Assembly: GCF_016808335.1 (NCBI RefSeq)
Contig: NC_053137.1
Coordinates: 4,663,904-4,727,903 of the forward strand
Length of the DNA stretch: 64,000 nucleotides
Direction of reading: 5' to 3'
Origin: Panicum virgatum
Taxonomy: Eukaryota; Streptophyta; Magnoliopsida; Poales; Poaceae
Part shown: positions 648 through 54,860 of the stretch, piece after piece
How the letters are laid out: each line of letters opens with the position of its first letter
Numbering within the stretch: position 1 is the first letter of the stretch
Position numbers and translations under genes: made by a program
Notes under the pieces: generated by a model
Told to the model about the DNA's origin: nothing
Seen by the model: only the letters and a program-made list of their open reading frames with translations
The model's database searches: none

Positions 648-669
648 TTTCCCATGCCTCCCAACCCCA
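648..669 (-). promoter_or_regulatory. miR2118-like target site, unit 1
   Basis: The + strand reads TTTCCCATGCCTCCCAACCC followed by CA. It contains the miR2118/482 core ATGCCTCCCA and, by eye, matches rice miR2118 members at about 17-18 of 22 positions. The minus strand therefore carries the target-type sequence. Confidence 0.65.
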
Positions 670-816
670 TACATTCATGTTCTTGCATTCAAGTAGTTTA
701 TGGCCAGTTCCCTTGAGAATAATGGCTGCTTGTTTGTAACATCTTGCTTCTTTTTTTTGAGAAAGTTTGTAACATCTTGGTTTGATTGTGATTCTTCACT
801 GAGTCTTTGAGACACA

Positions 817-910
817 TATATAGGAGTATCTTGGAAGGGAACACGATGGAGATGGAAGGTGGTTATAACTCAGAGGTATGTACGTGCTGTATTGATGATT
901 GGTTAGGCAG
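817..910 (-). promoter_or_regulatory. Conserved TATA and CCAAT block, unit 1
   Basis: Read on the minus strand: CCAAT in the block 891-910 (CTAACCAATCATCAAT), then TTATAACC near 870, then TATATA at 817-822. Order and spacing recur in unit 3 and in part at about ten other places, while the sequence between the blocks diverges. This is the pattern of a core promoter under constraint. Confidence 0.55.
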
Positions 911-1394
911 GTCCTGTTTGCACACGAGATATATATTCACCCGGTTGTACTAGCTAGCTAGAGGAGACATAAACGACTCTAATTCTTTTCTCTTGTTGGA
1001 GCTTGCTTACAGCTAGCCTGTGGCTAGACGGAACAAAGGCTATTCCTTCATTAGAAACAAATTCACGCAATGAAACAAAAAACATGTAATCCTACACAAG
1101 AAGCAGAAAATTAAGGCGATGGTGCATCTTGCAAACATAACCATTGCAGCATCACCTTTTCCTAGAACAGGTTATAACATTAATACATTATAAATCTCAA
1201 TTGATTTCAAAACAGTTACAAAGCTTAGTAAGAATATTAAAAGAAGAAATGCCTTTTTTTACTAGCCGTTTTTTTAGTATGATCCATCAAGTAAATTACA
1301 GTTGGCAGTGATGCGAACAGTACTCCTTCGTCCTTTGTCAAATTGAGAAGGGTTTTTAGCATGAGACACTACTAGAAAATGGCTCATTCATCCG

Positions 1395-1695
1395 CGGCCT
1401 TTAATACCGGGTATATTTTGGTCCGGTACTAACATTGTCCCGAGGTCAATTTAGTACCGGGTCTAAACTTAAACGTTCTCTGAGCCATTTTAGTACCGGC
1501 CAGTGTCTCCGTCCGGTACTAAATGTTGTCTTTTAGTACCGGGCGGTGTCTTGGACTGGTACTAAAATGGCGTGGTCATTTTAGTACCGGCCTGAAACAC
1601 CAGCCGGTACTAAAAAGCGTCATTTAGTACTGGCCGGCACTAAATTTTTCCACCACCATCACCGTCCTTATTAATGACTGGAGCCGGTACTAAAA
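1395..1695. repeat. Subterminal TACCGG repeats of the outer CACTA
   Basis: Alternating AGTACCGG and CCGGTACTAA motifs in both orientations, roughly every 30-60 bp. In CACTA elements such subterminal arrays bind the element-encoded transposase proteins. The matching right-hand array is short (13370-13455). Confidence 0.8.
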
Positions 1696-1914
1696 TCCAC
1701 CAGCACCGTCGTCCTTAAATCCACCACCACTCCGCCACATCTTATCTCTATCTCATCCTCTCTCTCTCCCTCCCTCCTCTCCTCAGGCAAGCCGCAGGCG
1801 GCCTCCCGGCATGCGCTGGACCAGGCGGCGCGCGGGGCTCGGCTGGCCTCCCGGCGGCGCGCAGAGCCACGCCGGCCTCCCAGCGGCGCCCGGGGCCACG
1901 CCGGCGCGCGGTCC

Positions 1915-2126
1915 TCCGATGACTGCGGGTCCTTCAGCTTGCGGAGGTCGATGACCGGAATCGCGCAAGCACCGTCGTCGCCGGCGACGACCTCCTCAGA
2001 GCTGGGATCCTTGCTGAGGTACCTCTCGAGCACCTGCTGCAGGACATCGACCTCGCCGTTGCAAGCCTCCGCGAGCACCTGCACGTTAGCCACCGGGAGA
2101 GACCCAGCTGTTCTTGCTTCCGCCAT
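1915..2126 (-). pseudogene. Captured 5' fragment of a 2-oxoglutarate/Fe(II)-dependent dioxygenase gene
   Basis: On the minus strand an ATG at 2126 opens a frame reading MAEARTAGSLPVANVQ, then YLSKDPSSEEVV and IPVIDLRKL. This is the N-terminal region (DIOX_N) of plant 2OG/Fe(II) oxygenases of the SRG1/norcoclaurine-synthase-like group, from memory of that family. After about 70 residues the match stops and the frame runs into unrelated GC-rich sequence, so the catalytic HxD...H jelly-roll is absent. It lies wholly inside the outer CACTA and looks like transduplicated host exon 1 with some 5' leader, including the GGA repeat just upstream. No full enzyme can be made from it. Confidence 0.7.
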
Positions 2127-2137
2127 TATTGATACTC

Positions 2138-2185
2138 CCTCCTCCTCCTCCTCCTCCTCCTCCTCCTCCTCCTCCTCCTCCTCCT
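2138..2185. repeat. (TCC)n microsatellite
   Basis: About 16 TCC units directly upstream (minus strand: GGA) of the captured dioxygenase start codon. It probably came from the 5' leader of the captured gene. Confidence 0.95.
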
Positions 2186-2514
2186 ACTTCGCCTGGAGTT
2201 TCTGGGACTTGCTGGATGCTGCGTTGAGTTATAAGATGTGTGGTGTTTGACTGTTTGTGATCCGCCAAAGCGGTGGTTGGTCTGTTGTGATTGTGAGATG
2301 TATTTTTCTAAAATTTGTGATTGTGAGATGTATTCTTGTGATAGTGAAATGTATTCTTGTGATTGTCATATTTGTGATTTTTTGATTGTGATGACCGATG
2401 TGGTGGGAAAGGAAAAAGAAAGAAAATGCGAATGAAAACGAAAACGAAAAAAGAGGCGCGAAAGGAAAAGCTGATGCGTTTGGACACACTACTAGAAAAC
2501 AGGCCAAAGGTCCT

Positions 2515-2880
2515 GGCCAAAGGTACCAGCTGCTTTTGCAGCCGGTACTAATGCCACGCATCAGTACCGGCTGCAAAAGCAGCTGGTACCTTTGGCCAGC
2601 GGCGATCAAAGGTAAGGTGTTTGGTACCGGGTTAAAGCATCACCCGGTGCCAAAACTTCAATATAGGAACCGGTTAGTTCCACCAACCGGTACCAAAAGC
2701 ACAAGGAGGAATAGGTACCGGCTGGTGGAACCAACCGGTGCCTAAAGGGTGGACAATGGCACCGGATTTTGCCATGGCCCGGTGCCGCCACGTGTCCACA
2801 ACAAAGGCACCGGTTAGTAACATCAACCAGTGCCTATGCCTTTTGTTTGGCACCGGTTGTTGAGCACCAACCGGTGCCTT
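2515..2880. repeat. Left subterminal repeats of the inner CACTA
   Basis: Dense GGTACCGG and CACCGGTT motifs paired as short palindromic hairpins (for example around 2522-2595, 2670-2700, 2715-2745, 2805-2880). They are expected binding sites for the element's transposase. Confidence 0.8.
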
Positions 2881-2889
2881 TGAGCCACG

Positions 2890-2898
2890 CCTATAAAT
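2890..2898 (+). promoter_or_regulatory. TATA box of the inner CACTA TNP2 gene
   Basis: CTATAAATA followed by a C-rich leader, about 290 bp before the TNP2 start. A GTTAGT at about 2991 and an AG at 3182-3183 could bound a 5' leader intron. Confidence 0.55.
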
Positions 2899-3183
2899 AC
2901 CCCAACCCCTCCCCCCCTCCAAGCTGCCGTGAACTCACTGTTCATGGCAGCTGAGTGAGGGGAGGGGAGGCGATTTTTTTTCAAAAAAGGTTAGTTATTT
3001 TTCTCCATAACTTAGCAATTGGTTTTTAGAAGCAGTTATCATTTAATTTATTTGATAAGTGAATAGTATCTATTTATTATAGTTATAAGCATTATCAATT
3101 ATATATTTGAATTCAAATTTAATATAGTATGAATGTATTATTTGTACACTACAATGATGTATATAAATGTATTGTGGACCTAG

Positions 3184-6100
3184 ATGAGTTGGCAATGGAT
3201 GTACATGGCCGATCGGCGTTCAAAGGAGTTCATTGATGGCGTGCATGAATTCATAGAAGCGGCCGAGAAACACAAGTATGACGGTTTCGTTCGTTGTCCA
3301 TGCAAATTCTGTAAGAATGAGAAGGATTACTCATCATCAAGAACCATCCATAGTCACTTGTTCAATAGTGGTTTCATGCCGAACTACTATGTTTGGACCA
3401 AGCATGGCGAAAGAGGAATTGAGCTGGATAATAATGTAGAAGAAGAGGACATGATTCCTGACTTTGCAGCCAATTATAATTCCTTTTTCAACGACACTGC
3501 AATGGGTGAGCCTAAAGAAGATACTGAAGGATACGTTGTAGAAGATGATCTTGGTCAGATGCTGCGCGAAGCTGAGGAAGGTTGCGAAATAGAAAAGGAA
3601 TCGAGAGATCTGAAGCGTATGTTGGAGGACTACAGAACATTGTTGTACCCTGATTGCAAACAAGACCAAAAGAATTTGGGTACCACATTGGAATTATTGC
3701 AATGGAAGGCATCAAATGGTTTGTCTGACAAGGGATTCGAGGAGTTGCTGAAACTTATTAAAAACTTACTCCCTGAGGGTAACACCTTGCCGGAGACAAC
3801 ATACGAGGCAAAAAAAGTTGTTTGTCCTTTAGGATTAGAGGCACAGAAGATACATGCTTGTCCTAATGACTGCATCCTATATCGAGGTGAGTATGAAAAT
3901 TTGGATTCATGCCATGTATGCAACGCATGCCGGTATAAGATCCCTCGAGATGATCCAGGCGATGTTGAGGGGATGCGTGTCAAGAAGAGGGTGCCTGCCA
4001 AGGTGATGTGGTATTTTCCTCTAATACCACATCTGAAATGTTTGTTCATGAACAAAACGAATGCTAAATTGATGCGTTGGCACAAAGAAGAACGTAAGCA
4101 AGAAAATATGTTGAGACACCCCGCTGATGGGTCGCAGTGGAGAAAAGTGGACAGAACATTCCCAACATTTGCAAATGAAGCGAGGAATATAAGGTTCGGC
4201 TAAAGTACGGATGGCATGAATCCTTTCGGTGAGCAGAGCAGTGGTCATAGTACCTGGCCTGTAACACTCTGTATATACAACCTTCCTTCCTGGTTGTGTA
4301 TGAAGCGGAAATTCATTATGATGCCGGTGCTTATCCCCGGCCCGAAGCAACCCGGTAACGATATAGATGTGTATCTGAAACCACTGATTGAGGATCTTCT
4401 ATTGTTGTGGAAAGATGAGGGTGTTCGTATGTGGGATGCGCACGCAGAGGATCATTTTAACCTGCGTGCATTGCTTTTCGTAACCACCAACGATTGGCTA
4501 GCACTAAGTAACCTCTCCGGACAATCCAATAAGGGATATAGGGCATGCACCCATTGTTTAGAAGAAACCGACAGCATGTACCTCAAGCACTGTAGGAAGA
4601 TCGTGTATATGGGTCATCGTCAATTTCTTCCGATCAAGCACCCATTAAGGAGGAGGCATGCTCACTACGATGGAAAGGCAAATCATCGTACCAAGCCTAG
4701 GCACCGTTGTGGGAAAATGGTGTTTGAAATTGTCAAAGATATAAAAGTAATATTCGGAAAATGACCCAACAGCAAATCAGTGCAGAGTGATGACGGACGT
4801 GCACCTATGTGGAAGAAGAAGAGTATTTTTTGGGAGTTACCTTATTGGGAAGTCTTAGACGTCCGCCACGCAATTGATGTGATGCACCTAACAAAAAATC
4901 TTTGTGTGAACCTTCTAGGTTTCCTTGGTGTCTACGGTAAGGCAAAGGATACATTGGAAGCGCGGCAAGATCTTCAACGTATGAAACAACGGGCCGCCCT
5001 ACATCCAGAAAAAAGGGATAAAGGACGTCATTATCTAGGTCCTGCGTGCTACACTCTTAGTAAGGAAGAGAAGCAAAGTATGTTCGACTGTTTGAACAGT
5101 ATCAAGGTCCCATCAGGCTACTCTTCGAATATAAAGAGACTACTGAACTTGAAAGAGAAGAAATCCGCACACGTAAAGTCCCATGACTGTCACGTGTTGA
5201 TGACGCAATTGATTCCAATTGCACTTAGAGGTATTCTACCATCTAATGTTCTAGCAACAATCATAAAGCTATGCGCATTTCTCAACACAATTTCTCAGAA
5301 GGCAATCGATCCATCGAGTTTAAGCAGGCTACAAGAGGATGTTGTCCAAAGTTTAGTCAGTCTTGAAATGATATTTCCTCCATCATTCTTCAATATTATG
5401 ACGCATCTTCTAGTTCACCTGGTCAAAGAGATTGGTATTCTCGGTCCTGTTTTGTTTCATAATATGTTCCCTTTTGAACGATACTTTGCAGTACTAAAGA
5501 AATACGTTCGTAATCGGGCTCGTCCAGAAGGAAGCATTGCGAAGGGTTACGTCACAGAGGAGGTCATTGAATTTTGTGTTGACTATGTGGAAGAACTCTG
5601 CCCAATTGGGATTCTAGTATCACGTCATGAGGGGCGGCTGATTGGAAAGGGCACACTTGGAAGAAAATCAGTAAATGCCACATATCATGCCACGTTGAGC
5701 AAAGCACATCTCACAGTTCTGCAACAATCAGCCTTGGTGGCTCCATACATGGAGGAGCACATGCAAATTGTGTGAAGTATATACCCTTTGAAGTTTAAGA
5801 CATGGATTACAAAACATCATAACGATACATTCGCCACCTGGTTGCAGAAGGAAGTCATGGCCAACGATCAAATTCATGAGCAGCTAGCTTGGCTGGCCAG
5901 GGGTCCGGCAAATTCAATCCTGATGTACCAAGGATACGAAATTAATGGTTACACATTTTATACAAGAGCCCAAGATAACAAGAGCACCAATCAAAATAGT
6001 GGTGTCCGTATAGATGCCACCGACTCTAGTGGCCAAACGAACTCATATTTTGGTTACATTGAAGAGATCTGGGAACTCGACTATGGGCCGTTGAAGATAC

Positions 6101-6540
6101 CTCTATTTCGTTGTCAATGGGTTAAACTCACAGGAAAAGGTGTCGATATCGACGAGTACGGAATGACAACGGTAGACCTCAAAGAGCTTGGCTATCGAGA
6201 CGAACAATTCGTCCTAGCTAAAGATGTCACTCAAGTTTTCTATGTGCAGGACATGTCTAGCAAAACGAGAAAGGACAAGTCTAGGAATAAATCAAGTTTT
6301 GTAGGTGCCGGAGATGAGGCAAAGCGCCATATTGTTCTGGCAGGAAAAAGAAAAATTGTGGGAGTCGACGATGTCACAGATGAAGAAGAATACAATAAGG
6401 TTGAAGGCATGACTCCGTTTGCAGTGGAGGTTGACACAAGTATTCTTTTAGCCGAAGAGGAGGCTCCGTACGCACGTCATGATCATAATGAAGGGACGAT
6501 TGTAAAGCGAACCATCGTTAATATTCCCTTAGTTGAATGA
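3184..6540 (+). pseudogene. TNP2-type CACTA transposase, broken by three in-frame stops
   Basis: A single frame of 1119 codons runs from ATG 3184 to TGA 6540 with no frameshift, interrupted by TAA at 4201, TGA at 4762 and TGA at 5773 (codons 340, 527, 864). Order of domains: Transpos_assoc zinc-binding N terminus (about residues 1-90, with CPCKFCKNEKDY), Transposase_21/TNP2 catalytic region (about 210-470, containing DGMNPFGEQSSGHSTWPV after the first stop), a linker with DVRHAIDVMHLTKNLCVNLL, DUF4218 (about 660-805, with MFPFERYFAVLKKY) and DUF4216 (about 920-995, with FYTRAQDNKSTNQNSGV). The family's role is to cut CACTA ends. Full colinearity with only point stops suggests recent loss. The third stop is compatible with CpG deamination (CGA to TGA). 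Confidence 0.93.
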
Positions 6541-7030: not shown

Positions 7031-7054
7031 AAAGAAAGAGGAAAAGAAAAGATA

Positions 7055-12834: not shown

Positions 12835-13124
12835 GGGGACTAGTAGTTGGACGGCTAACATGACTTGTATATTTGTAAATATTTTTAAACATTATGCCTT
12901 GATGTTTGTAAATTTGTAAATATATTAGTTCATGTAATTAGCTTAATTATATGCTCGCATTTCACTTTTAGTTAGTTTCAAATATTCTCTGAAAACGAAC
13001 ACGAACAACCAATGAACGTAGAGTACTGTAGAGCTTGAGTGCGTTTAGCAATTATAAAAGAATAAACAGTAATAAATAGAACAAACAAAACTGGATTTGG
13101 GAAAAAAAGGGAAAATGTCATTGG
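12835..13124. other. 3' flank of the CACTA second gene
   Basis: AT-rich sequence with no reading frame or repeat I can support, leading into the right subterminal array. Confidence 0.6.
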
Positions 13125-13350
13125 TACCGGTTGGAAATACCAACCGGTACCAAAGGGGCTGCCACCTTACGTCAGCGAGGCAGCCTCTTTGGTACCGGCT
13201 AGTATTTCCAATTGGTACCAATGGAGCCCTAAGGCACCGGTTGAAAAACCCGGTGTCTTAAGTAGAGGCCAATGGTCGCGGTTGCGGGGCACCGGTTGGG
13301 AAACCTGTGTCTTTGGCCTTTCTCAGCCGGTGCCCAAGGCCCGTTTTCTA
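13125..13350. repeat. Right subterminal repeats of the inner CACTA
   Basis: GGTACCGGTTGG/CCAACCGGTACC hairpins and CACCGGTTG motifs mirroring the left end. Confidence 0.8.
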
Positions 13351-15489: not shown

Positions 15490-15908
15490 GCAACAAAAAA
15501 AAAGTACCGGCGCAGCTGCCAGCGACAGCGTCGGCTGAGAAGTGACAACGCAGAGCCAAGCACAAGCGGCAAAAGCAGGTTAGTGGCACACGCAGCGACG
15601 ATGGCAGTGAGCCAAGCACATCGAGCACCAGCATCGCCTGACGGCGCAGCAATCCACAAGCTGGAGGAACCGCAGGCTCAAAATGTGCTGACTTTGTGCA
15701 CTGCTGCTTTCCTCATACCTAGAGTCTTGACTGATGAAAGCAGATATGTGCGGTTTATCATGAAGACCCCAACCCATCTCTTTCCCATGCCTCCCAACCC
15801 AAAACCCATGTTCTTGCATTTAAGTAGTTTGGCCAGTTTCCTTGAGAATAATGGTTGCTTGTTTGTAACATCTTTCTTCTTGTTTTTTAGGAAGTTTGTA
15901 ACATCTTT
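15490..15908 (-). ncRNA. Putative 21-PHAS non-coding RNA, unit 2
   Basis: Same layout as unit 1: TATATA at 15940-15945, then the target at 15781-15802 (138 bp from TATA). Predicted phase register starts at 15790 and runs down. The leader and downstream part align with unit 4 (19720-20000). A CCAAT block is not seen here because the sequence changes after the TTATAACTC motif. Inferred only. Confidence 0.5.
15781..15802 (-). promoter_or_regulatory. miR2118-like target site, unit 2
   Basis: The + strand is TTTCCCATGCCTCCCAACCC followed by AA, identical to unit 1 over 20 bases. Read as protein, the opposite strand resembles an NB-LRR P-loop (GLGGMGK), the usual coding target of this miRNA family, but no NB-LRR gene surrounds it. 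Confidence 0.65.
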
Positions 15909-17739: not shown

Positions 17740-18313
17740 AGCAAGAGCAGAGAAATACAAAAACAGAGTACCAGACCTCCATGTATTATACTCTTGGACA
17801 CGCCCCTTGCCCGGTATCTGTTTTATTTTGTTCCCACCATCTGTGACATTCGATAACCTGACCAGCTCGATTTGGTGTTGCTCATCACTTGGGAGGAACA
17901 ATTTCCCTGCTGTCCAAAGTTGATCCAGAAGCACCAGCCTCCAATGAAAAGAGAGAGCCAAGCACAATGCGGTGGAAGCAAGTCGCTGGCCCCAGCGGCG
18001 ACGATGACAGTGAGCACCACAGCACATCGACAAACCACGAGGCTGGAGGAACCGTATTAGGCTTAAAATGTTGTGATCTTGTGCAATGCTGCTTTCCTCA
18101 TACCTAGAGTCTATCAAGATGAAAGCACTGACGTGCCGCATATCGCGGAGTATCGGACCCATCTCTTTTCCATGCCTCCCAACCCCATACATTCATGTTC
18201 TTGCATTCAATTAAGTACGTAGTTTGCCCAGTTTCCTTGAGATTGAGAATAGTGGCTGCTTGTTTGAAACATCTTGCTTTTTTTGAGAAAGTTTGTAACA
18301 TCTTGGTTTGATT
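17740..18313 (-). ncRNA. Putative 21-PHAS non-coding RNA, unit 3
   Basis: TATATA at 18345-18350, target at 18166-18187, CCAAT block at 18425-18446. Aligns to unit 1 over its whole length without the 345-411 fold-back. Predicted register starts at 18175 and runs down. Inferred only. Confidence 0.5.
18166..18187 (-). promoter_or_regulatory. miR2118-like target site, unit 3
   Basis: The + strand reads TTTTCCATGCCTCCCAACCC followed by CA, one base different from unit 1. The core ATGCCTCCCA is intact. Confidence 0.65.
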
Positions 18314-18344: not shown

Positions 18345-18446
18345 TATATAGGAGTATCTTGGAATAGAACATGATGGAGATGGAAGGTGGTTATAACTCA
18401 GTGGACAGTGATATGGACATGTTGTATTGATGATTGGTTAGGCAAG
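18345..18446 (-). promoter_or_regulatory. Conserved TATA and CCAAT block, unit 3
   Basis: TATATA at 18345-18350, GGTTATAACTC near 18390 and ATTGATGATTGGTTAGGC at about 18427, in the same order as unit 1. Confidence 0.55.
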
Positions 18447-19719: not shown

Positions 19720-19999
19720 GGTTTCACCCTGAGTACGAGTAGAGCAACACAAAAACAGAGTACTGATGCAACTGCCAGCGACAGCGTCGGCTGAGAAGTG
19801 ACAACGTAGAGCCAAGCACAAGCGGTGAATGTAGATATGTGCTGTTTATCATGAAGTCCCCGACCCATCTCTTTCCCATGCCTCCCAACCCAAAACCCAT
19901 GTTCTCGCATTTAAGTAGTTTGGCCAGTTTCCTTGAGAATAATGGCTGCTTGTTTGTAACATCTTTCTTCTGGTTTTTTACGAAGTTTGTAACATCTTT
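19720..19999 (-). ncRNA. Putative 21-PHAS non-coding RNA, unit 4
   Basis: TATATA at 20031-20036 (repeated at 20041), target at 19872-19893. Compared with unit 2 it has lost about 200 bp between the CAGCGACAGCG block and GATATGTGC. Predicted register starts at 19881. Inferred only. Confidence 0.45.
19872..19893 (-). promoter_or_regulatory. miR2118-like target site, unit 4
   Basis: Identical on the + strand to unit 2 over 22 bases (TTTCCCATGCCTCCCAACCC + AA). Confidence 0.65.
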
Positions 20000-22639: not shown

Positions 22640-22700
22640 ATTGTATTGATGATTGGTTAGGCAGAGAATATATATGTCCCATGCTTCCCGATCCGATCGT
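22640..22700 (-). promoter_or_regulatory. Unit promoter fragment and decayed site
   Basis: ATTGATGATTGGTTAGGCAG at about 22645 is the CCAAT block; TGTCCCATGCTTCCCGATCC at about 22675 is a weak site-like block that aligns with 13826 and 19226. Confidence 0.4.
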
Positions 22701-24340: not shown

Positions 24341-24362
24341 TTTCCCATGCCTTCCAACCCTA
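24341..24362 (-). promoter_or_regulatory. miR2118-like target site, unit 5
   Basis: TTTCCCATGCCTTCCAACCC + TA on the + strand, one change in the core. CCAAT-type blocks follow at 24509 and, duplicated, at about 24645. Confidence 0.5.
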
Positions 24363-26121
24363 TAGATGTGTTCTTGCATGAAAATTTGAGAATAATGGGT
24401 GCGGATTCCTACTATTTACTATGATGACTGTGATTCCTACTATTTAGCTTCCAAAGGGAAGATTGAGATAGGAGGGAGAGTAATAACTCAAAGGCTCTTA
24501 TGTGCTACATTGATGACTGGTTAGAAATAAAGGTTGGGCACTAGTTGGACAGGCAGAGCTAGACTTTTACCTCCATATGTACTATATACAACTAGTTACT
24601 AGGCCGCACAGTGTCAGTTATGACCAACATCTCCCTGCTGCTACATTGATGACTGGTTAGAAATAAGTGTCGATGCGTGCATGGACGTGCATGTAACCTA
24701 ACACAACGGGCAGCAATTAAACATCACATCACCTATTAACTTGTCCGGGGAAAATACATTATGACAATGAGAAGAAAAAGGAGTTGCATCTGAGGAGAAA
24801 AAAAGGACAGTAGAGTTGTGTGCAAGGAAGCTGAGGAAAGGGCAACTGCATCCATGCCTTGGCAGAAGAAGGATTGCTGCGTCTGTGCAAGGGTAGAAAG
24901 TGTGACAGAACCGCCAAATTAAAACTCTAATTAAGCGTAATGATCGTCATTTGAACACATCGAGCGCATTAGCTTAATGGCTTAATTTGGCGATCCTTTC
25001 TCAACCCACGGCCCGATCGAAACATCACCGATAGTCCCACGCAAAGGTGGGCGCAAATGGTACAAGCACGACACATATTTGAAAATACAACAAAAATACA
25101 TAAGACTTCACCTTAAGTTTTACAAACCAAATTTGAATAAATACACAATTTACAAACTTTGCATTACTGAAATCCGGGTTCAACTAGAGGAAAGGGGCCT
25201 ACAACCACCAAAAGTGAGCCATAAGGAGATCCCTAACTAAACGTCTGGCTCCACAACCTCCCATCCCTCTGCATCACGGCGGATGAACTTGATGCAGCAG
25301 GGACAGAAGTCCACGTCCGGGTGTCCTGTAATGATAATGGTGGCAACAAACCCTGAGTATTCTAATACTCAGCAAGGCTTACCCGACCGGTGGGTATAAC
25401 TTAGCCCACATATCTAGACATGCACGGCATTTGGTTGGTGGTTTGTTTTGCAGAAATAGCGACTAGAGGTGTATCCTTACTTTCAAGGTTTTAACCGCAT
25501 ATTTTATATGGATAGACTCTCACTAATGTTCGCCTGTCTACACACGCATGTTGAAGCATCCAATTAAGATTCAGAATAGTATCCACTTTCATATCTCTAA
25601 CATCCTAACTCGTCTGCTACGAGGTGACAAAGAGATCAAGGCCATCATATCCGCGAGACACGGCGAATCGATCCGATTTAACCTTGCAAGGTAGACCTAA
25701 CCGACACGGCACGCATAATCCCCGTCGGACCACACGCACCAACCCTTCCCCTCCCCGCCTCGAACTACAGGACCGCCCCACCATCATATGGTCAGCCGAG
25801 CTCAACATGAGACCACCAAAAATAATACATGCATCCCTATTTCTCTGCGACTACTCGACTACCCCAGGAGGTGAGATGGAGTCCTGTACTTTTGAAGCAA
25901 GGCAGTACTAGGCTTACCGGTTTCGACTACCTCCTACTCCCGGCATGCGGTTAGTACAATTCAATCCCCGATCAGCACTGCCACAACGACCGGTCCTTAA
26001 ACGACACAGACGGGGCTAAGGCACCCAGAAACCCTGTCCTGCTGCCATCCCTAAACATTCTTATCATTCCCCGTCCGGTCTTAATGCCCATATCAAAAAC
26101 AATAACTCATGTACTGGAATA

Positions 26122-27920: not shown

Positions 27921-27944
27921 TTTCCCTTTTGCCTCCCAACCCTA
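27921..27944 (-). promoter_or_regulatory. miR2118-like site with 2-bp insertion, unit 6
   Basis: TTTCCCTTTTGCCTCCCAAC + CCTA: flanks and core as in units 1-5 but AT replaced by TTTT. The unit's CCAAT block is separated from it by a solo LTR and lies at 29540-29560. Confidence 0.45.
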
Positions 27945-29528: not shown

Positions 29529-29682
29529 GTTATCTGCCCATTGATGATTGGTCAGGCAGGTTCATTTGCACTGTAGTATGTGGTGCCACTTCATCTCCTA
29601 TATGACAGGTTTTTTTTTGGTAGTGTGGGCTTTGACAGGGGACTGCTGGATATACTGCACCTTTTATCTCCCTCCTCACTTT

Positions 29683-32848: not shown

Positions 32849-32870
32849 TAGGGTTGGGAGGCATGGGAAA
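32849..32870 (+). promoter_or_regulatory. miR2118-like target site in opposite orientation
   Basis: The + strand itself reads TAGGGTTGGGAGGCATGGG + AAA, the exact reverse complement of the consensus of the other units. A TATATATA lies about 90 bp upstream (32757-32764). Transcription would be rightward, with a predicted 3' fragment starting at 32861. Confidence 0.6.
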
Positions 32871-33660: not shown

Positions 33661-33682
33661 ATTCCTCTACCTCCCAGTCCCA
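33661..33682 (-). promoter_or_regulatory. Degenerate miR2118-like site, unit 7
   Basis: ATTCCTCTACCTCCCAGTCC on the + strand; TATATATA at 33802-33809 is 120 bp away, the usual spacing. A GATCATAACTCAATGG block follows after the MITE. Confidence 0.45.
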
Positions 33683-34671: not shown

Positions 34672-36895
34672 TACCTGGCCATGCAGCACGAGGCACGGTG
34701 GGCCGACCCGCAGCACGAAAAAATGGCACGGCACTGGCCCGGCCCGGCATGGGGCTTCGCGGGCCCTGGCCAATACGAGCACGCCTGCATTGCATGCCAG
34801 GGCTGTATACTCAGAACGCTGAGCCGGCCCGGCCCGGCACGGCATGGTTAGGGCTAGGCCCGTCAGGCACGCGAAGCAGCCCGCGAATGCAGTCAGCCTG
34901 CCAGGCACGCCCCCAATGGCCCACACCCCGGCCCAATGGCTCTCTCTCTCTCCCCCCCCCCCAGCCCAACGGCTCTCTCCCCCTGGCCGTATAAAAGGGG
35001 CGGCCGAGCAGATGGCGGAGGCCAGCACAAACCCTAGCCTCTGCTCGCCGCCTCGCCCAACTCGCCCACTTCTCCGATCTAGGAACACTTTAAAGAGATC
35101 TTCGAGATGAGGAGAGGTAAGGAGGTAAGAGTCGGTGCAAAGTGTAAGCACTGCAAGAAACTCTACTCTGGTCTTAGCTCTGGTGGCACTGGACACTTGA
35201 CTAGGCACATTCCTAAATGTCCAGTGTTGAAAGGGCACCGTGCTAGTGGTGCTCAATCTTTGCTTCAGTTCAATTCTGATGGATCTGTTGCTAATTGGGA
35301 GTACAGTCCCGAGGTTGCTAGAGTTCAATTGGTTAGGCTTATTGCTAGACTTGATCTGCCTTTAGGATTTGGTGAGTCAGAAGCATTCGATGACTACATT
35401 ATCACTGCTCACAATCCTATGTTTACTCCTTGCTCTAGGCAAACTACAACTAGGGATCTAACTAAATACTTCACTGAACGTCGTGATAAACTTATGGACA
35501 CTTTAAAAACTATTTCATCTGTTGTTTCTCATTTCATTAATTATGATTGGCAATTAGAGAAAAGGATACTTGGCATGAGGTTAATCGATTGCTCACACAA
35601 TGTTGAAAATATTGCTGAACGTGTTGCTTGTGTTGCATCTGGTTATGGCATATCTGATAAGATATTTTCTATTACTCTTGATAACGCATCTGCAAACACT
35701 AAATCCATGGGAAAATTAACTCCTTTGCTATCTGGTTATGTTGGTTCTTTACTGTTGCATCAGAGATGTGCTTGCCATATCTTTAATCTGATAGTTAAGG
35801 CTAGACTTGATTCATTCAAGGATATGTTGGCTAACTTTAGAACTGCTATATCATTCTTGAATGCATCTAATCAACGCATTGCTTCCTACAAGAGTTATTG
35901 CATTGCTATGGGTGTTAGGCCTAGAAAATTTGGTTTGGATATGGATGTTAGATGGAATTCAACTTATCTCATGCTTAAGCATTTAATCCCACATAGAGAG
36001 ACATTTTTTGTGTGGATCACCACTAATTACCCTTTGAAGTATGGTGAGTCTCTGCTAACTAATAAGCATTAGGATATTGCTGAAAAAATACTTGCTTTCC
36101 TTGAACAGTTTCATGATTCCACAGTTGTTCTGTCTGTTGTTTATTATCCAACCTCTCCATTAGTCTTGCATCCTGTTTTTGAGATTGCTAGTCATTTGAA
36201 TGAATACCAGTTTGATAATGATCTAAGGTTTGTTGTTAACCCCATGAAAGATAAGTTTCTAGCCTACTGGTCTGATATACCTATATTGTACTCCTTTGCA
36301 TTTATCTTGGATCCAAGGGCTAAGATAAAGGGTTTTACCAGTGTGCTTAGACTACTATCTAGATTCAATGATGTTGATTACTCCTCTTATTTAACTGAGG
36401 TAAGAGCTGAACTGTCTGAGATTTACAAAAAATATGAAACTAAGTTTGGTTCAATGAGAGTGCAGAGGCCTACTCAACCAGTCACAACTGGTAAGAAGAA
36501 GTATTCATGGGGTAAGATATTTGCTGATGATGGTGGTGGGTCTGGTAACTTGAGTTCTGGATCTTTGGTTCATTCTATGCTTGGGTTTGGTTCTGGTGCT
36601 ATGGGTTTGGTTCTGGTGCTACTGGTTCTTGTTCTGGTGCTAGTGCTGCCTCTTTGTCCAGGAGAAGTTCATCTACTAGTGCTTTACTCCAGGCAGCACA
36701 AGCAGGTTCATCTCTTGCTGGCTCTGAGCTAACTAGCTACCTTGACAGTGACACAATTAACTCTTTTGATGAGGAGTGGAGTGTTTTATCTTGGTGACGA
36801 GATCACAAACTAACTTATCCTATTTTATCCATCTTGGCCAAAGACATCTTCATTGTTCCTGTTTCTACTATTATTTTTATAATAGCATAGGTGGG
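34672..36895 (+). mobile_element. Decayed hAT element
   Basis: The left part (34672-34860) is rich in GGCACGG/GGCCCGGC motifs typical of the subterminal region of this grass hAT group, followed by a leader and a transposase pseudogene. The right terminus is missing; after 36895 the sequence returns to the unit paralogous to 41380. Confidence 0.65.
35107..36888 (+). pseudogene. hAT transposase, multiply broken
   Basis: Starts MRRGKEVRVGAKCKHC with a BED-type zinc finger (CKHCKKLY...HLTRHIPKC, residues about 12-40). The middle shows the RNase-H-like region (DKIFSITLDNASANT, LHQRCACHIFNLIVKA, FGLDMDVRWNSTYLML). Between MDTLKT and SVVSHFINYDW some 60-100 residues usual in the family, including the first catalytic Asp segment, are missing. 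An in-frame TAG lies at 36070, a 1-nt deletion near 36603 inside a GGTTCTGGTGCT repeat shifts the frame, and the dimerisation region (ELTSYLDSDTINSFDEEW, then HKLTYPILSILAKD) is cut by TGA at 36795 and ends early. It cannot be functional. Confidence 0.9.
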
Positions 36896-37167: not shown

Positions 37168-37189
37168 TTTCCCATGACTCCCAACCCTA
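37168..37189 (-). promoter_or_regulatory. miR2118-like target site, unit 8
   Basis: TTTCCCATGACTCCCAACCC + TA. TATA-like GTATACATA near 37290 (about 100 bp) and ATTGATGATCAGCCAG near 37321. The unit is paralogous to unit 11 (36900-37350 versus 41400-41573 plus 45651-46060) and supplies its LTR empty site at 37100-37104. Confidence 0.55.
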
Positions 37190-37998
37190 CACGCTCTTGT
37201 AGTCCTAGATAGGAAGTTCGCTTAAGGGATTTCAATGTATCCTCTATCCAGTTTTCCTTTTGTGTTTGTGTTCTTTGCACCAACATATGTATACATAGCA
37301 CTCAAAGGGTAGGTGACGTATTGATGATCAGCCAGATGGGTGTTAATACTATTTTCATTGTACGCACAGGTGTTAATCAGTTGGAGGAGGGCAAAAAAAA
37401 TCAGGTGAGAGAGGAAATAATTTTGTTTGCAGATATAACTGGATGCAGTCACAATTTTGATTGGCTATATCCAGTTTTTTTTAGTTTCTATATCCTTGGA
37501 CAAAATGGACCGTAAAAGACACTTTCAAGAATCTAAGTTCAAAATCCACTTGTCTTCGGTAAAACTATCCCGATTTTATTAACTCAATGTAACAACCAGA
37601 AATGGATTGCTCATCATTCTTTTTTGTTCCGAGTTCAGCACCATATTGCTGTGAAGATCGTAGAAAAATCGAGAGTAGTGAGACCTTGCTAGTAGTGGCG
37701 GAGCTAGGATTGAACCCAAGAGGGGGCTATTGCTACAGTAATCACAGTAACGTTAGCAGCCTCGCCTCAACACATGCTCACACACTACTTTGATTAATCT
37801 GATGCTGGACTAAAAGGATTCGGAATTAAGATATGGCTTATTAGATGGGGCTTGAGTACATGGTGGGGTGAACTGGTTCTATGGCTCAAGTTCACTGTTT
37901 AGAGCCCATAGATGATTATTCTTACCCTTTCAGTCAGTTTAGTCCAACCGAGCACAGAACCGAGCACAGAGGCCCTTCTTCTTCTATCCTTGGAACTC

Positions 37999-38910: not shown

Positions 38911-38932
38911 TGTCTGATGCCTCCCAAGCCTA
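38911..38932 (-). promoter_or_regulatory. miR2118-like target site, unit 9 (best match)
   Basis: TGTCTGATGCCTCCCAAGCC + TA contains CTGATGCCTCCCA and ends GCCTA as in several rice miR2118 members; about 19 of 22 positions agree by eye. TATTTATA (minus) at about 39102 and a CCAAT-type block at 39122. Confidence 0.65.
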
Positions 38933-39619
38933 CACAACCTTGCACATTGACCTGGCTGCTCTAGTTCCCTTGGAATAGTGCATGAATTCTATGTTTATCT
39001 TCTGGTTTGATTTAATTTACCTTTAGTTTATATTGTGCTAGCTCTCCTCTCCAACACACACGCACACATCACTTAAAGAATGACAAAATGGAGATGAGAC
39101 TTATAAATAATGGATAGCTGGTATATTGATGACTGGTTAGATGAATACTGATAATGTAGATTCGCATTTCTTTCAGGGTTGTGCCAAATAAAAAAAAACT
39201 CGGCCTGCGAGGGGCAAGCCGCCCCTCGAGCATTAATGTAAGAAGAAAACCTCTCATGCAGGTCGAGAAAACCTACACAACCTTGCACATTGACCTGGCT
39301 GCTCTAGTTCCCTTGGAATAGTGCATGAATTCTATGTTTATCTTCTGGTTTGATTTAATTTACCTTTAGTTTATATTGTGCTAGCTCTCCTCTCCAACAC
39401 ACACGCACACATCACTTAAAGAATGACAAAATGGAGATGAGACTTATAAATAATGGATAGCTGGTATATTGATGACTGGTTAGATGAATACTGATAATGT
39501 AGATTCGCATTTCTTTCAGGGTTGTGCCAAATAATAAAAAAAAACTCGGCCTGCGAGGGGCAAGCCGCCCCTCGAGCATTAATGTAAGAAGAAAACCTCT
39601 CATGCAGGTCGAGAAAACC
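38931..39619. repeat. Recent 343-bp tandem duplication of a unit promoter
   Basis: Copies 38931-39273 and 39274-39619 differ by little more than an AAT indel. The duplicated part begins at the last two bases of the unit 9 site, so the promoter region is doubled but the target site is not. It includes a GGGGCAAGCCGCCCCTCG retroposon-tail-like segment. Confidence 0.92.
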
Positions 39620-41018: not shown

Positions 41019-41040
41019 TCTCCCATGCCTCCCAACCCTA
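41019..41040 (-). promoter_or_regulatory. miR2118-like target site, unit 10
   Basis: TCTCCCATGCCTCCCAACCC + TA. A CCAAT block (TATTGATAATTGGTCAG) lies at about 41199. Confidence 0.6.
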
Positions 41041-41573
41041 CACTGTCTTTGCAAGTGTGTGCCTGGCTAAATCAAGAAATAATACTGCTGGGTTCCATGT
41101 CTCCTCTGTCCCATGCGCTCGTCTCGATCCAACACATGTGTTAGGAAGACGATGGAAATAAAAAGGACAAAGAATAGGTTAAGTAGTCCTCGTGTATTGA
41201 TAATTGGTCAGAGTGTTCTGAATTCTGATACTCCTCTATTCAGCTTCATGGACCAACAATTCAGTGAATGTTCATGGTTTGGCTGCACGTCGTGTTAATT
41301 GAAACTTCCTTTTATTGTGGATGGATACAGGTAGTTAGGTACTGCTCGAGCAACCAATGCACAGCAAGCATCATTCTAGCTCAATAAAAAGAAAACACGA
41401 CCATCATTATCGGGCTTGCACCCAGTCAGTTTTAGGCTCCACGGAGCCCAAGTCTGAGCTAAAGAAAAAGCAACACCAGCAGCAGCACTTCGTCGCTGCG
41501 TGTGGTGTCCACCATCTCCTCATGGCTCGTGGTAAGCTCATCGATCGGCAAGCAAGTCCTCAGCTTGCTCCCT

Positions 41574-45704: not shown

Positions 45705-45726
45705 TTTCCCATACCTCCCAATCCTA
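45705..45726 (-). promoter_or_regulatory. miR2118-like target site, unit 11
   Basis: TTTCCCATACCTCCCAATCC + TA. TATATA at 45955 is about 128 bp away once the 101-bp insertion at 45779 is removed; TGATGATCGGTCAG near 46028. Confidence 0.55.
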
Positions 45727-45879: not shown

Positions 45880-46574
45880 CAAGACGATTTCATCATGTAT
45901 ATATCTTCTATCTAGTTTTCCTTTTGTCCTGTGTTTTTCGCAATAACGTATACATATATAGCACTCAAGGGATGGATGGAGATAACTGAAATAAAGACCG
46001 TTCCCTCAAAGGTTAGGTGATGTACTGATGATCGGTCAGATGGGTACAAATACTAATTTATATTGTAATTAGTTGGAGGAGAGGGCAAGAATTTTTCTTT
46101 TTATTTGCACATATAACTGGATTTAGTTATCAGTTGCCCGTTCTTTTTTCTTTCCTGTGTGCCATGTCTCATACTGAACTGTTGAGTACTGCTGCTACTT
46201 GCCAGATGGCATGTTCATGTCACCGTGCATCTTGAAAGATGTGGAGTAATGGTGGTTGGTGGATGATGTTTTATGACTAGCATTTGGGGTTTGGCATGGA
46301 CAAGAACTCTAGTCTGAATAATAAGCTTTCGAAAAAAATAAATCTGAATCATTTACCAAATTAATTAGACCGCACCACACCCAAAAAAAAAACGCGCACG
46401 GACCACACACTCACATTAAAAATGACTCATGCATAGCAGCTTCGTAGATGTGTCCCTATCTGACTGTACAATGAAGAGTCATGAGCTAGCATTCCTCTTT
46501 TCTGCCAAACTCTGTGGGTGTGTTTGACAACTTGCACGCATGGGTGTGTTTGACAACTTGCACGCATTTTAGAA

Positions 46575-51260: not shown

Positions 51261-51330
51261 AAAAGAATGTTATTAGCTAGTACACTACAATTCCAATTTG
51301 CCATGGTTCCCTGCCTTCCAGAAACAAAGC

Positions 51331-51352
51331 TTCCTCATGCCTCCCAGCCCCA
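51331..51352 (-). promoter_or_regulatory. miR2118-like target site, unit 12
   Basis: TTCCTCATGCCTCCCAGCCC + CA, core intact, starting TTCC as in canonical miR2118. No clear TATA: the upstream side was replaced by other sequence after 51500. Confidence 0.55.
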
Positions 51353-51514
51353 TGCTCAAGCATGTAACTTTGTTTTTTCCCTCAAGAATAATAGATTCCA
51401 TGTCTCTTCTATTTTTTTCTTCGCTTCCTTTGTGATCTTAGTCTGGTCCAACACGCACGCACACACATGCATGGGTCTCTCTCCTCATACGGTGATATGG
51501 TTTCTTATAACCCC

Positions 51515-52340
51515 TCCCAGGGGCAGGCTCAGGATTTGGAATAATATATGTATTCAAAATTTTCAAACGGTGAAATTTCTTTATAGCCTAAAGTACATAT
51601 TGAGTACTGACGATATAACATTCCCCATAACTTGAAATTATTGGACATATAAATAACATATATATGTACTAAATGATCAACATTTTTAAAGCAGATCATC
51701 TAAAATAAATGATAAAATCATAAAATTGAAAATAACATTAATAATTAAGATGCTTACAAATTATAAGATAGCTTTCCAAACCATGATAGCTTGAAAAAGT
51801 TTGATGATGTCTCATCTTTCACTAGCAAGAACTCAAGAAGAATTCCATCTCAATGAACGTGATCAAGTGATTATTCAAATATTGCTGCCCCTCATCATGA
51901 CGTACTACAAATTACAATAACGGGTTCCATAAATATATGAGAAAATATTCCATAAATATTTTCCTCACGTGCAGGCTCGGTGGTCATCCACTCCAATGAA
52001 CCTGATGAACCGTCGCTGCGGACTGCGGCGCTGCTCGACCACCGCCCGACCACCAACCCGCGGACGGTCGACCGCCGGAACAGTCCGACCGGAGCGCCTG
52101 CAGGCAGCCGGGGGAGTGGGACGTGTGGAGCTGCCGCGGCCAGATCGCCGCCTCGAGCCCTCGCCTCCGTCTGGGGCTGACCGGCTAGGGAATTAGGGGC
52201 GGGGCCGAGAGCGCTCGGCCCGGCCTCTTGCCGGTGGCTGACGGCAAATGGGCATGTGGGCCTTCAAGGTTGGGAGGGAGGGAGGAGGTGTGGTGGGCAC
52301 TGCCTATGTTTATTGGTCCTGAAGGGAAGATTGGAAGTTT
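51515..52340. other. Probable element remnant with a GC-rich island
   Basis: CCAGGGGCAGGCTCAGG at about 51527 resembles the hAT-type GGGGCGGAGCCAGG end seen at 345; 51960-52240 is a GC-rich island in AT-rich surroundings. No gene recognised. Confidence 0.3.
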
Positions 52341-53055
52341 AGAAGCCCGTTATACTGCAATTTCTAATTTTTTATACAAATATACATGAAGTATACTACT
52401 ACATATATAAGTTTTTGCCAAATGGGTATTCAAGTGAAGTGGGCCCGTCCCTCCCCAAACCTCAGAAATAAAATGATTCACAGCTTCATTAAATTTTTTA
52501 TTTATTCCTTCCCCACTGGGCAATAGTGGCACAGGCATTGAAGAAATTAAATGACCTTGCGTTCCTCTTTTTTCTCTTCCAAGCATTTGGTGTTAAATGG
52601 CAATTACTTTGATGCATTTTAGAACAACATCTTGCTTACAAGAACTGGCCAACATGAAAAAGTTTAACAATCTACGTAGATGTCAAAACTGTATGGCAGT
52701 ACATAGCACCAAGGCAAAAGGAGAAAACCATACGGTTCCTGAAGTTCGAAACTAAAATCATGGTTCATGGCCAGCGTGGCTGAGCTGCCATGGCGCAGGC
52801 AGCTCCCCCAGGCGTCCGATTTCGAGCACCAGGGTCGGATTTGCTGCCTGGCATCAGCAGGACCCTCAGCTGCCTGCGCCAGGACCGTAACCAAACAGGC
52901 CCTAATTCCCCGTGCTGTTGGGTTTACACCTATCATTGGCAGCACACTGAAAAAAATTGGCATCTTACATTTCTAGTTTCCATCAAGTTTAATGCTTTGT
53001 AGAACACTGATTTGGGGCTTCTGTGCTATAGTTTTAGGCCATCCTAAACCATCTG

Positions 53056-53077
53056 CATCCCATGCCTCCCAATTCTA
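53056..53077 (-). promoter_or_regulatory. miR2118-like target site, unit 13
   Basis: CATCCCATGCCTCCCAATTC + TA. ATATAA near 53195 (about 117 bp) and GTATTGATGATTGGACAGG at about 53257 complete the promoter layout. Confidence 0.6.
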
Positions 53078-53749
53078 TGCAGTCGTCTTCGTACAAGCAA
53101 GTCTGGCTAAGTTCCTATGCCAACATTGACCTTCCACAAATCTCATGTAATTTGCTTTGCTCATGTGGCTTTCCTCTCCGAGACACACACACACATATAA
53201 CACCCTTGAAGGGAAGGGCATATATAGAATGGAATTGTATCTGAAATGCCGGTGTCGTATTGATGATTGGACAGGGTAGGTGTCAAGTCAATTTGCATTA
53301 TACTCAGCACTGGGTGTACTAGTTGGAGGAGTAACAATTTTGACCACAAATTTTCATTAATAGTCCAGGACACTCCCACGTGGAAAGCTGGTTAGGCATA
53401 CTAGCTTAATCTGTGCTCTATAATGGCCAAGGTTGGGCCGTGCCGTCAGTCATTAGGATTTGTGCTTCTGTGTCAGGAAAAGACACAAGTTGCAATCAAT
53501 TTTCTGCAATATTTTTTTAAGAAGTTGTTCACTCTTTGGATGGTAGCACTCTTCATGAAATGTGGTTACATTGTAGAGAAATGCGCTTGCCTAATCAAAT
53601 AATTTTTCTCTCCGTTCTTCGTTTCCAGAAAGTGAGAAGTGCTCCTATATATATTGTCCATTGATTGGTTGTGGTCCTAACTGTGATTGCTGACCTGATC
53701 AAGCAACCTTCTTCGACAGCGAATGACAAACCAGTCGATGCACAAGCAA

Positions 53750-54200
53750 AGTTAATCAGGCATGTCTAACCCATCAGCGAGCGATTCGGCCCCATCCTGC
53801 TGCCACATACTCTGATGCCGGAGCCTCATTCTGCAGCCAAACAGTGAAAAATGTTCCAGACCTCTCCCAACCCCATCATTCACACACCTGAAATATACAG
53901 ACATGACAAAATGACTCTTCTGAAGCAAGGATTCCCATCCAAGCAGTGAGCTATAGACTTCAGGGCATGGGATCTAATTAAATCTAACCAGCGCATTGAC
54001 TAGCTAGCTTCTCTTGTATTCTCAACTTTTGGAAGAGCATCATCCCTTCTCTATACCATCTGCTCCCAATCAGACACTAACCTATATAGAAGACGGGGAT
54101 GACAAGACGTTAGTGTTATATAGCTTGTGCACAAGGGTAGATGGCAGGTCAATTGATTACGGCCATATTATCTGGACTTTGAGGTCAAAAAATTAAGAAG
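53750..54200. repeat. Unit-like segment paralogous to 48235-48620
   Basis: See partner entry for shared blocks. It has an extra 90-bp stretch (about 53910-54000). Confidence 0.65.
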
Positions 54201-54838
54201 AAAACAGCAGCAGCAAAAATTAAGAAGAAAACAGCAGCAGAATGAAACTTTCGTAAAATTAAATTTGAGCAAATTTTTAAGCCTGTTGACCTCCTAGTCG
54301 TCCAAACAAATTTTCTACAGAATTTTCTTCGATTTGACAACAGAGTTAACAAAAATCAATGGATAATCTTCTTTTAGGATGCACACAACTAACAATCAAT
54401 TTAGCTGTCAAGTTCGAGATACAAACAGAAGTTGTTTAATTTGCTTCATTAATAATGATAAAATCTTGATTATGTTTCATTGTTGCAACATAAACAATTG
54501 GTTCTAAACCCTAAACTCTAATTTTTTCAACTCTTTTGTTGTTTTTCTCGTGTCTCTACAACGTTTGAGGGCGTTCTAGGTGGTCTGTCGACTTAAGAAC
54601 AACCCTAGATCTTCGAGTTCCGACGTTCTCTGAAGGATCAGGTCCTAGGTTTTCGCAGCATTCTCTGAAGGATCGGTCTGACCAGTTGAGCCAGGCGATC
54701 TGGGCGGTTGGCGCAGAGGACCGCTGGTGAAGATCGTTGCGATCTGTGCATTCTACCAGTTTGTGTGTTGATCTAATTTACGTCAACACTCTGGCAAAAT
54801 GATCAGCTCACTATTGTGGTGCAATTGTCTGAAATGTT

Positions 54839-54860
54839 TTTCCCAAGACCTCCCAACCCA
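54839..54860 (-). promoter_or_regulatory. Degenerate miR2118-like site, unit 14
   Basis: TTTCCCAAGACCTCCCAACC + CA. The (TC)n tract follows where the promoter would be. It is the last unit before the gene island. Confidence 0.4.

What the first reader, a model, noticed from the sequence alone, without database searches (positions are those of the whole stretch)
648..54860. Cluster of at least 14 miR2118-type target sites in non-coding tandem units: candidate 21-PHAS locus cluster
A 22-nt block with core ATGCCTCCCA recurs at 648, 15781, 18166, 19872, 24341, 27921, 33661, 37168, 38911, 41019, 45705, 51331, 53056 and 54839, always in one orientation, across 54 kb where most other sequence has diverged. 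The complement is the target motif that defines grass 21-nt reproductive phasiRNA loci, known to be non-coding and clustered. No NB-LRR gene is present to explain the motif as a P-loop.
Basis: partly seen in the sequence, partly recalled or inferred. Interest (0 to 1): 0.88.

Follow-up and report, generated by a model that had tools for sequence, protein, structure and literature searches.

The report
Clustered miR2118 target sites, switchgrass-like genome
A 54-kb stretch of what is probably the switchgrass genome carries about fifteen apparently non-coding units, each with a site that pairs with the plant microRNA miR2118, so it is very likely one more of the many grass clusters that make small RNAs in young anthers: an ordinary kind of locus, with a hint that the start of each unit is kept while the rest drifts.

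Summary
The 22-nt block is real. The exact core occurs 9 times in the window against 0.18 expected. Scored as miR2118 target sites, 9 places reach penalty <=4.5 against 0.05 in resampled sequence.

The genome (1.13 Gb; size and contig count fit switchgrass AP13 v5) encodes MIR2118 hairpin clusters: 25 of 30 fetched matches have the miRNA in one hairpin arm, against 0 of 16 window places. NB-ARC homology does not explain the motif. No reading frame through the site is kept in the two unit families aligned. A colinear cluster lies on the probable homeologous chromosome.

Among units (chosen by their site) an upstream element is shared and the downstream body is not. Three C16 units share upstream region and site.

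Best reading: a tandemly expanded 21-PHAS cluster triggered by miR2118, a new member of a known kind. Transcription, cleavage and phasing are inferred; no small-RNA data were available.

The parts
648..669 (-). miR2118-type target site; predicted 5' end of 3' fragment 657
   Evidence: penalty 4.0, positions 10/11 paired
15781..15802 (-). target site; predicted cut 15790
   Evidence: penalty 4.5
18166..18187 (-). target site; predicted cut 18175
   Evidence: penalty 6.0
19872..19893 (-). target site; predicted cut 19881
   Evidence: penalty 4.5
24341..24362 (-). target site; predicted cut 24350
   Evidence: penalty 4.5; no site in the corresponding C11 interval fetched
27923..27944 (-). target site, degenerate on the side pairing with the miRNA 5' end; predicted cut 27932
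   Evidence: penalty 6.5; no site in the corresponding C11 interval fetched
   Evidence: penalty 3.5; identical over 22 of 22 in C11:4282403-4282424
33661..33682 (-). weak target site; predicted cut 33670
   Evidence: penalty 7.5; C11 copy 95% identical in the 22-nt core, 51% in flanks
37168..37189 (-). target site with mismatch at miRNA position 10, probably weakened; nominal cut 37177
   Evidence: penalty 5.5; no site over threshold in the aligned C11 stretch
38911..38932 (-). target site; predicted cut 38920
   Evidence: penalty 4.0; C11 counterpart 4296447-4296468
41019..41040 (-). target site; predicted cut 41028
   Evidence: penalty 4.5; no C11 counterpart found
45705..45726 (-). target site; predicted cut 45714
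   Evidence: penalty 4.0; C11 counterpart 4297413-4297434 has a position-10 mismatch
51331..51352 (-). best-paired target site; predicted cut 51340
   Evidence: penalty 2.0 to hairpin-borne variant TTCCTCATGCCTCCCATTCCTA
53056..53077 (-). target site; predicted cut 53065
   Evidence: penalty 6.5
54840..54861 (-). target site, irregular core; predicted cut 54849
   Evidence: penalty 5.5
889..902 (-). upstream element CCAATCATCAATAC, 235 from the core of site 648 (low coordinate to low coordinate, as below)
   Evidence: 0 mismatches
817..822 (-). TATATA, candidate TATA box 159 nt upstream of the core of site 648
   Evidence: function inferred
18424..18437 (-). upstream element, 252 from core of site 18166
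   Evidence: 0 mismatches
22643..22656 (-). upstream element without a recognisable downstream site (decayed unit?)
   Evidence: 0 mismatches
24507..24520 (-). upstream element, 160 from core of site 24341; a second copy at 24643 is 296 away
   Evidence: 2 mismatches each
29538..29551 (-). upstream element without a recognisable downstream site
   Evidence: 2 mismatches
37318..37331 (-). upstream element, 144 from core of site 37168
   Evidence: 2 mismatches
39123..39136 (-). upstream element, 206 from core of site 38911; duplicated at 39466 without a second site
   Evidence: 1 mismatch each
41194..41207 (-). upstream element, 169 from core of site 41019
   Evidence: 1 mismatch
46022..46035 (-). 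upstream element, 311 from core of site 45705
   Evidence: 2 mismatches
53257..53270 (-). upstream element, 195 from core of site 53056
   Evidence: 0 mismatches

Best explanation
The window holds a tandemly expanded cluster of about 15 non-coding 21-PHAS units. SHOWN from sequence: each unit carries, on one strand, a 22-nt site with extended complementarity to miR2118 copies encoded as hairpins in the same genome; 8 of the 15 also have an upstream element 144-311 nt before the site. INFERRED from the established grass pathway: RNA polymerase II transcribes a long non-coding RNA from each unit in young anthers; miR2118 in an AGO1-clade protein cuts it opposite miRNA positions 10/11; RDR6 copies the 3' fragment and DCL4 dices it into 21-nt phased siRNAs running from the cut (657, 15790 and so on, to lower coordinates; 32861 to higher ones), loaded by AGO5/MEL1-type or AGO1-clade proteins. 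The cluster grew by duplication of whole units, after which the trigger site and, less strictly, the upstream region were kept while the siRNA-bearing body diverged.
For: Motif beyond chance. miR2118 penalty scan: 9 places <=4.5 and 15 <=6.5 against null means 0.05 and 0.65 over 20 resamples; 14 of the 15 are blocks, one (38010, +) is not. MIR2118 in the same genome: 36 pattern matches; 25 of 30 fetched have at least 17 of 22 miRNA bases paired in one arm, against 0 of 16 window places on the same strand; three further best-fitting variants also fold as hairpins. Window-type 24-mer (<=3 mismatches): 20 places in 1.13 Gb, 9 in the window, 5 in the colinear C11 region, 3 on C16, 3 elsewhere, reversed control 0. 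General target pattern: 246 sites against 4 for the reversed control (MIR2118 genes themselves included). C11 counterparts: the 22-nt core is 86-100% identical and above its flanks in 8 of 8 comparisons. Among 15 diverged units (13 window, 2 C11), upstream 10-mers are shared by up to 7-8 units, downstream ones by at most 5, the level of random segments. Published grass 21-PHAS features agree: long non-coding, mostly intergenic, miR2118 site as shared motif (passages).
Against: No transcription, degradome or small-RNA data could be examined. Pairing is imperfect with shared mismatches: positions 6 and 17 pair with canonical miR2118 in almost none of the 16 places examined, so shared ancestry explains part of the conservation. 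By my penalty only 5 of 15 sites score <=4.0. The site at 37168 and the C11 sites 4272601 and 4297413 mismatch at position 10, where cutting would occur. For 24341, 27923, 37168 and 41019 no C11 counterpart scored over the matrix threshold of 14. Flanks between homeologs are also fairly well kept (41-88%), so the contrast at the site is moderate. 7 of 15 sites lack the upstream element within 311 nt, and some elements have no site. On the target strand 2 of 16 places (19878, 33667) have the block paired one way in a predicted fold.
Confidence: 0.8

Rival explanations
1. Former 21-PHAS cluster, now mostly decayed: units of PHAS origin that are no longer transcribed or cut, the motif persisting by duplication and shared ancestry.
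For: Position-10 mismatches at 37168 and two C11 sites; penalties of 5.5-7.5 at 6 of 15 sites; upstream elements without a site at 22643 and 29538 and at two C11 places; four window sites with no C11 counterpart over threshold; transposons inserted among units.
Against: The 22-nt core exceeds its flanks in 8 of 8 comparisons with C11 and 9 sites score <=4.5. Selection on at least some units is the simpler reading, but the contrast is moderate.
Confidence: 0.13
2. The blocks are MIR2118/MIR482-like genes or relics, the + strand being the miRNA strand.
For: The + strand reads like a miR2118/miR482-type miRNA (miR482 likeness recalled); 33667 and 53062 are partly paired in predicted folds.
Against: 25 of 30 fetched MIR2118 matches have at least 17 of 22 bases paired in one arm, 0 of 16 window places do; MFE over +-130 nt is -83 to -121 for those 25 and -43 to -73 for the window places. 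No Rfam match up to E 5 lies at a block.
Confidence: 0.02
3. The blocks are fossils of the NB-LRR P-loop: read in one frame the block gives G-L-G-G-M-G-K, like the GxGGxGKT loop, and the units descend from resistance-gene fragments.
For: The GLGGMGK reading appears in the units at 654, 15787 and 19878; the bases that mismatch miR2118 at position 6 fit this reading.
Against: 12 ORFs taken from NB-ARC loci of this genome give 33 tblastn hits on window plus C11 DNA, best E 0.58. One chance hit overlaps a block (18133-18183, E 2.6) but with query residues 29-45, far from that ORF's P-loop at 207. The frame is not open beyond short stretches. The likeness is expected anyway because the miR482/2118 family is complementary to P-loop code (recalled).
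Confidence: 0.02
4. The conserved block starts a short protein (MYGVGRHGKEMG...).
For: ORFs of 176 and 160 aa open through the block in the units at 654 and 18172.
Against: The C11 counterpart stops after 18 codons, and in the units at 15787 and 19878 the stretches differ in length and start; no Pfam match at E <=0.01 for either ORF.
Confidence: 0.01
5. The unit is an ordinary dispersed repeat or transposon family that happens to resemble the miR2118 complement.
For: Duplication is obvious; transposons are present.
Against: A 351-nt piece of unit 1 finds only C2 (window), C11 and C16 in 1.13 Gb (12 matches); a 301-nt piece of the 38911 unit finds only itself, its tandem copy and C11. Other units were not searched this way.
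Confidence: 0.02

Closest known systems
Grass 21-nt reproductive PHAS loci (21-PHAS) triggered by miR2118, as in rice and maize
   Same: 22-nt miR2118-complementary site shared by the units; apparently non-coding; clustered; trigger genes present in clusters in the same genome.
   Different: The target motif has its own subtype (TAGGGTTGGGAGGCATGGGAAA) with shared mismatches to miR2118 positions 6 and 17; several units are visibly duplicates with the upstream region retained; no expression evidence.
MIR2118 clusters
   Same: Same 10-nt core on the miRNA strand; clustered, mostly in one orientation.
   Different: No hairpin arm at the window blocks (0 of 16 against 25 of 30).
NB-LRR genes targeted by miR482/2118 in eudicots
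   Same: Same target core; one frame reads GLGGMGK.
   Different: No NB-ARC homology and no conserved open frame.

Membership tests
21-PHAS (miR2118-triggered) | 22-nt site complementary to miR2118 | tested here: met
   9 places <=4.5 against 0.05 by chance; pairing table; imperfect at positions 6 and 17
21-PHAS (miR2118-triggered) | miR2118 encoded in the genome | tested here: met
   36 pattern matches; 25 of 30 fetched fold as hairpins
21-PHAS (miR2118-triggered) | non-coding precursor | tested here: met
   no conserved frame through the site in the two unit families aligned, 6 units in all; no Pfam match in the two ORFs at blocks; other units not tested this way
21-PHAS (miR2118-triggered) | intergenic, often clustered loci | tested here: met
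   15 sites in 54 kb; 9 of 20 genome-wide window-type matches lie here; gene models were not available
21-PHAS (miR2118-triggered) | site conserved while the body diverges | tested here: inconclusive
   core above flanks in 8 of 8 C11 comparisons; body not shared among diverged units; but units were chosen by their site and the contrast is moderate
21-PHAS (miR2118-triggered) | cleavage at positions 10/11 in vivo | not testable with these tools
   no degradome data; bases at 10/11 pair at 14 of 15 sites
21-PHAS (miR2118-triggered) | phased 21-nt siRNAs, premeiotic anther, DCL4/RDR6-dependent | not testable with these tools
   no small-RNA reads available
MIR2118 gene | hairpin with the miRNA in one arm | tested here: not met
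   0 of 16 window places
NB-LRR gene | NB-ARC domain around the P-loop | tested here: not met
24-PHAS (miR2275-triggered) | miR2275-complementary site | tested here: not met
   best place in the window has 7 mismatches of 22 (miR2275 letters recalled)

The most novel reading that the evidence does not exclude
The heritable unit of a 21-PHAS cluster is a cassette of promoter plus miR2118 site: selection keeps these two parts while the siRNA-bearing body is free to change. The element CTRACCARTCATCAATAC would be a promoter element for premeiotic anther expression in this family, the same cassette having also reached another chromosome (C16), with a miR2118 variant (TTTCCGATGCCTCCCATTCCTA) pairing best with most sites of this cluster (11 of 15).
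Probability: 0.3. Interest if true: 0.55.

Novelty: new member of a known kind. Interest (0 to 1): 0.36.

Why it matters
Grass 21-PHAS loci support male fertility and evolve so fast that their sequences are hardly comparable between species. A cluster whose units can still be aligned, with counterparts on the probable homeologous chromosome, shows which parts are kept and gives testable phase registers and a candidate promoter element. As a locus type it is well known.

Tried and rejected
Rfam scan: none of the 25 listed matches reaches its family's gathering score, and none lies at a block. A covariance model was built, but this genome cannot be searched with it. The weak candidate at 22681 was rejected as a site (penalty 9). 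The upstream element as a general 21-PHAS promoter motif was rejected: 17 genome-wide matches at <=1 mismatch (reversed control 2), of which 9 are in this cluster or its C11 counterpart and 8 elsewhere, whose surroundings I did not examine. A TATA box as independent evidence was rejected: TATAWA lies 149-169 nt upstream at 6 of 16 places, four of them close paralogues. The C7 matches carry one and the same different 28-mer. The sharing of the block among units was dropped as evidence because units were chosen by the block.
Full report
What is there. The core ATGCCTCCCA occurs 9 times in the window (8 on +, 1 on -) against 0.18 expected, and no shuffle of 100 reaches 9. A site in the opposite orientation at 32849-32870 was missed. 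Fourteen blocks align over about 42 nt on the target strand with consensus ..TATAGGGTTGGGAGGCATGGGAAAGAGATGG...

Where it is. The window is C2:4663904-4727903 of a genome of 1,129,937,113 bases in 627 contigs. Size and contig count fit switchgrass AP13 v5, for which the paper gives 626 contigs, 1,125.2 Mb of sequence and a subgenome divergence of about 6.7 million years (PMC7886653, passages seen). The species is my inference; no tool named it. C11 is taken to be the homeologous chromosome from colinear matches.

miR2118 pairing. I scored every 22-mer on both strands against 21 sequences from the MIR2118 clusters of this genome (mismatch 1, G:U 0.5, doubled at positions 2-12). The window has 9 places <=4.5 and 15 <=6.5; 20 first-order resamples give means of 0.05 and 0.65. 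Against canonical miR2118, positions 7-16 pair at 0.81-1.00 on average over the 16 places examined (22681 included; G:U counted as half), positions 6 and 17 at 0.09 and 0.03. A variant TTTCCGATGCCTCCCATTCCTA is the best partner at 11 of 15 sites, and TTCCTCATGCCTCCCATTCCTA fits 51331 at 2.0; both fold as hairpins in the genome. Positions 10/11 are paired at 14 of the 15 sites; 37168 is the exception.

Not a MIR gene. Of 30 fetched matches to a miR2118 pattern (36 found in the genome), 25 have at least 17 of 22 miRNA bases paired in one arm; the five on C3 and C6 do not. Of the 16 window places none does on the miRNA strand; on the target strand 2 (19878, 33667) do in one of two fold lengths. 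An earlier version of this test folded some controls on the wrong strand.

Not NB-LRR, not a protein. Twelve ORFs from NB-ARC loci of this genome give 33 tblastn hits on window plus C11 DNA, best E 0.58; one chance hit (E 2.6) overlaps the block at 18172 but with query residues 29-45, far from that ORF's P-loop. A P-loop pattern was found in 9 of the 12 ORFs. The ORFs running through blocks 654 and 18172 are cut after 18 codons in the C11 counterpart, and the paralogous units at 15787 and 19878 have other, shorter stretches. Six units were tested this way.

Distribution. The window-type 24-mer with up to 3 mismatches occurs 20 times in the genome: 9 in the window, 5 in C11:4.269-4.297 Mb, 3 on C16:22.15-22.24 Mb, 2 on C4, 1 on C20; reversed control 0. 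The looser pattern TRGGNNTGGGAGGCATNNGRAA with one mismatch has 246 places (reversed control 4), including MIR2118 genes and many sites on C3; only the first places were listed. So miR2118-site candidates abound in this genome, and the window is one cluster with its own motif subtype. The nearest further listed match on C2 is one site 47 kb to the left (4616977).

What is conserved. In 8 comparisons with C11 (6 distinct C11 sites) the 22-nt core is 86-100% identical and always above its +-200-nt flanks (41-88%). The contrast is moderate: averaged bins at -55 to -33 and +55 reach 0.88-0.91, against 0.92-0.94 in the core. Four window sites (24341, 27923, 37168, 41019) have no counterpart over a matrix score of 14 in the C11 DNA fetched; no C11 DNA matching the window beyond 48193 turned up in what I fetched (to 4302000), so counterparts of 51331-54861 are untested. 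Among 15 diverged units (13 window, 2 C11) the block is shared by up to 13, but units were chosen by it. Outside the block, upstream 10-mers are shared by up to 8 (an AT-rich word) and 7 (TCATCAATAC, CCTTTGAGTT), downstream 10-mers by at most 5, which is what random segments give.

Upstream element. CCARTCATCAATAC with up to 2 mismatches occurs 13 times in the window against about 1.05 by chance, all 13 on the - strand, and 6 times in 40 kb of C11, again all on -. Of the 13, 9 lie 144-311 nt upstream of a core and serve 8 units; the rest lie farther off or have no site. The pattern was taken from these sequences, so this is descriptive. With CTRACCARTCATCAATAC at <=1 mismatch there are 17 places in the genome, 9 in this cluster or C11. 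Unit 1 (351 nt) finds only the window, C11 and three C16 units. In C16 the upstream region and a target-like site are kept with a much shorter leader between them. The element thus belongs to this family of units and is not shown to be a general 21-PHAS signal.

Mechanism. The known grass pathway (passages of PMC8368212, PMC11127045, PMC7562718, PMC7305157, PMC7057497; abstract and outline of PMC11127045) is: long non-coding Pol II transcript, miR2118 cut, RDR6, DCL4, 21-nt phased siRNAs needed for male fertility. One methods passage keeps only PHAS loci with a trigger site, at a target score <=4 in sPARTA (PMC8368212); my penalty is a different scale, and 5 of 15 sites here are <=4.0. In wheat most PHAS loci (76-86%) are kept in one subgenome only (PMC7057497, passage); here 8 of 15 sites have a counterpart among 6 C11 sites, but that compares sequence sites with expressed loci and proves nothing general.

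Verdict. A real cluster of miR2118-type sites, most probably a 21-PHAS cluster and a new member of a known kind. Interest lies mainly in the visible cassette of upstream region plus trigger site. Everything beyond sequence (transcription, cutting, phasing, stage) remains untested.

Noticed in passing
window 889-53270, - strand; C11 4272838, 4296652, 4296834, 4297619 and others: Shared upstream element CTRACCARTCATCAATAC, on the - strand in all 13 window and 6 C11 hits, over half of its close genome-wide matches lying in this cluster or C11 (9 of 17).
   Followed up: yes
C16:22145315-22145500, 22193730-22193915, 22238120-22238304 (L058-L060): Three near-identical units on another chromosome with the same upstream region and a miR2118-type site but a much shorter leader.
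   Followed up: partly
C1:28.96-28.99, C2:19.80-19.85, C7:32.70-32.74, C10:36.49-36.51, C16:30.22-30.26 Mb: MIR2118 clusters; their matching layouts suggest C1/C10 and C7/C16 homeology (inference).
   Followed up: partly
window 3184-6540 (+) and 35083-36732 (+): CACTA-type (tnp2) and hAT-type transposase remnants among the units.
   Followed up: no
window 59731-60919 (-): ORFs with RNA recognition motifs, probably exons of a protein-coding gene to the right of the cluster.
   Followed up: no
window 38926-39541: Recent tandem duplication (273 nt, 99%) of the upstream part of unit 38911 without a second trigger site.
   Followed up: partly
window 2514-2598 and 13120-13222: Long perfect or near-perfect inverted repeats (MITE-like) that give sub-threshold Rfam miRNA matches.
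   Followed up: no
C3:50.2-53.1, C3:10.46-10.55, C3:58.71-58.84 and C6:11.03-11.18 Mb: Further miR2118-complementary places; the five fetched at C3:58.73, C3:58.84 and C6:11.03-11.18 Mb do not fold as hairpins, so they are candidate target sites.
   Followed up: partly
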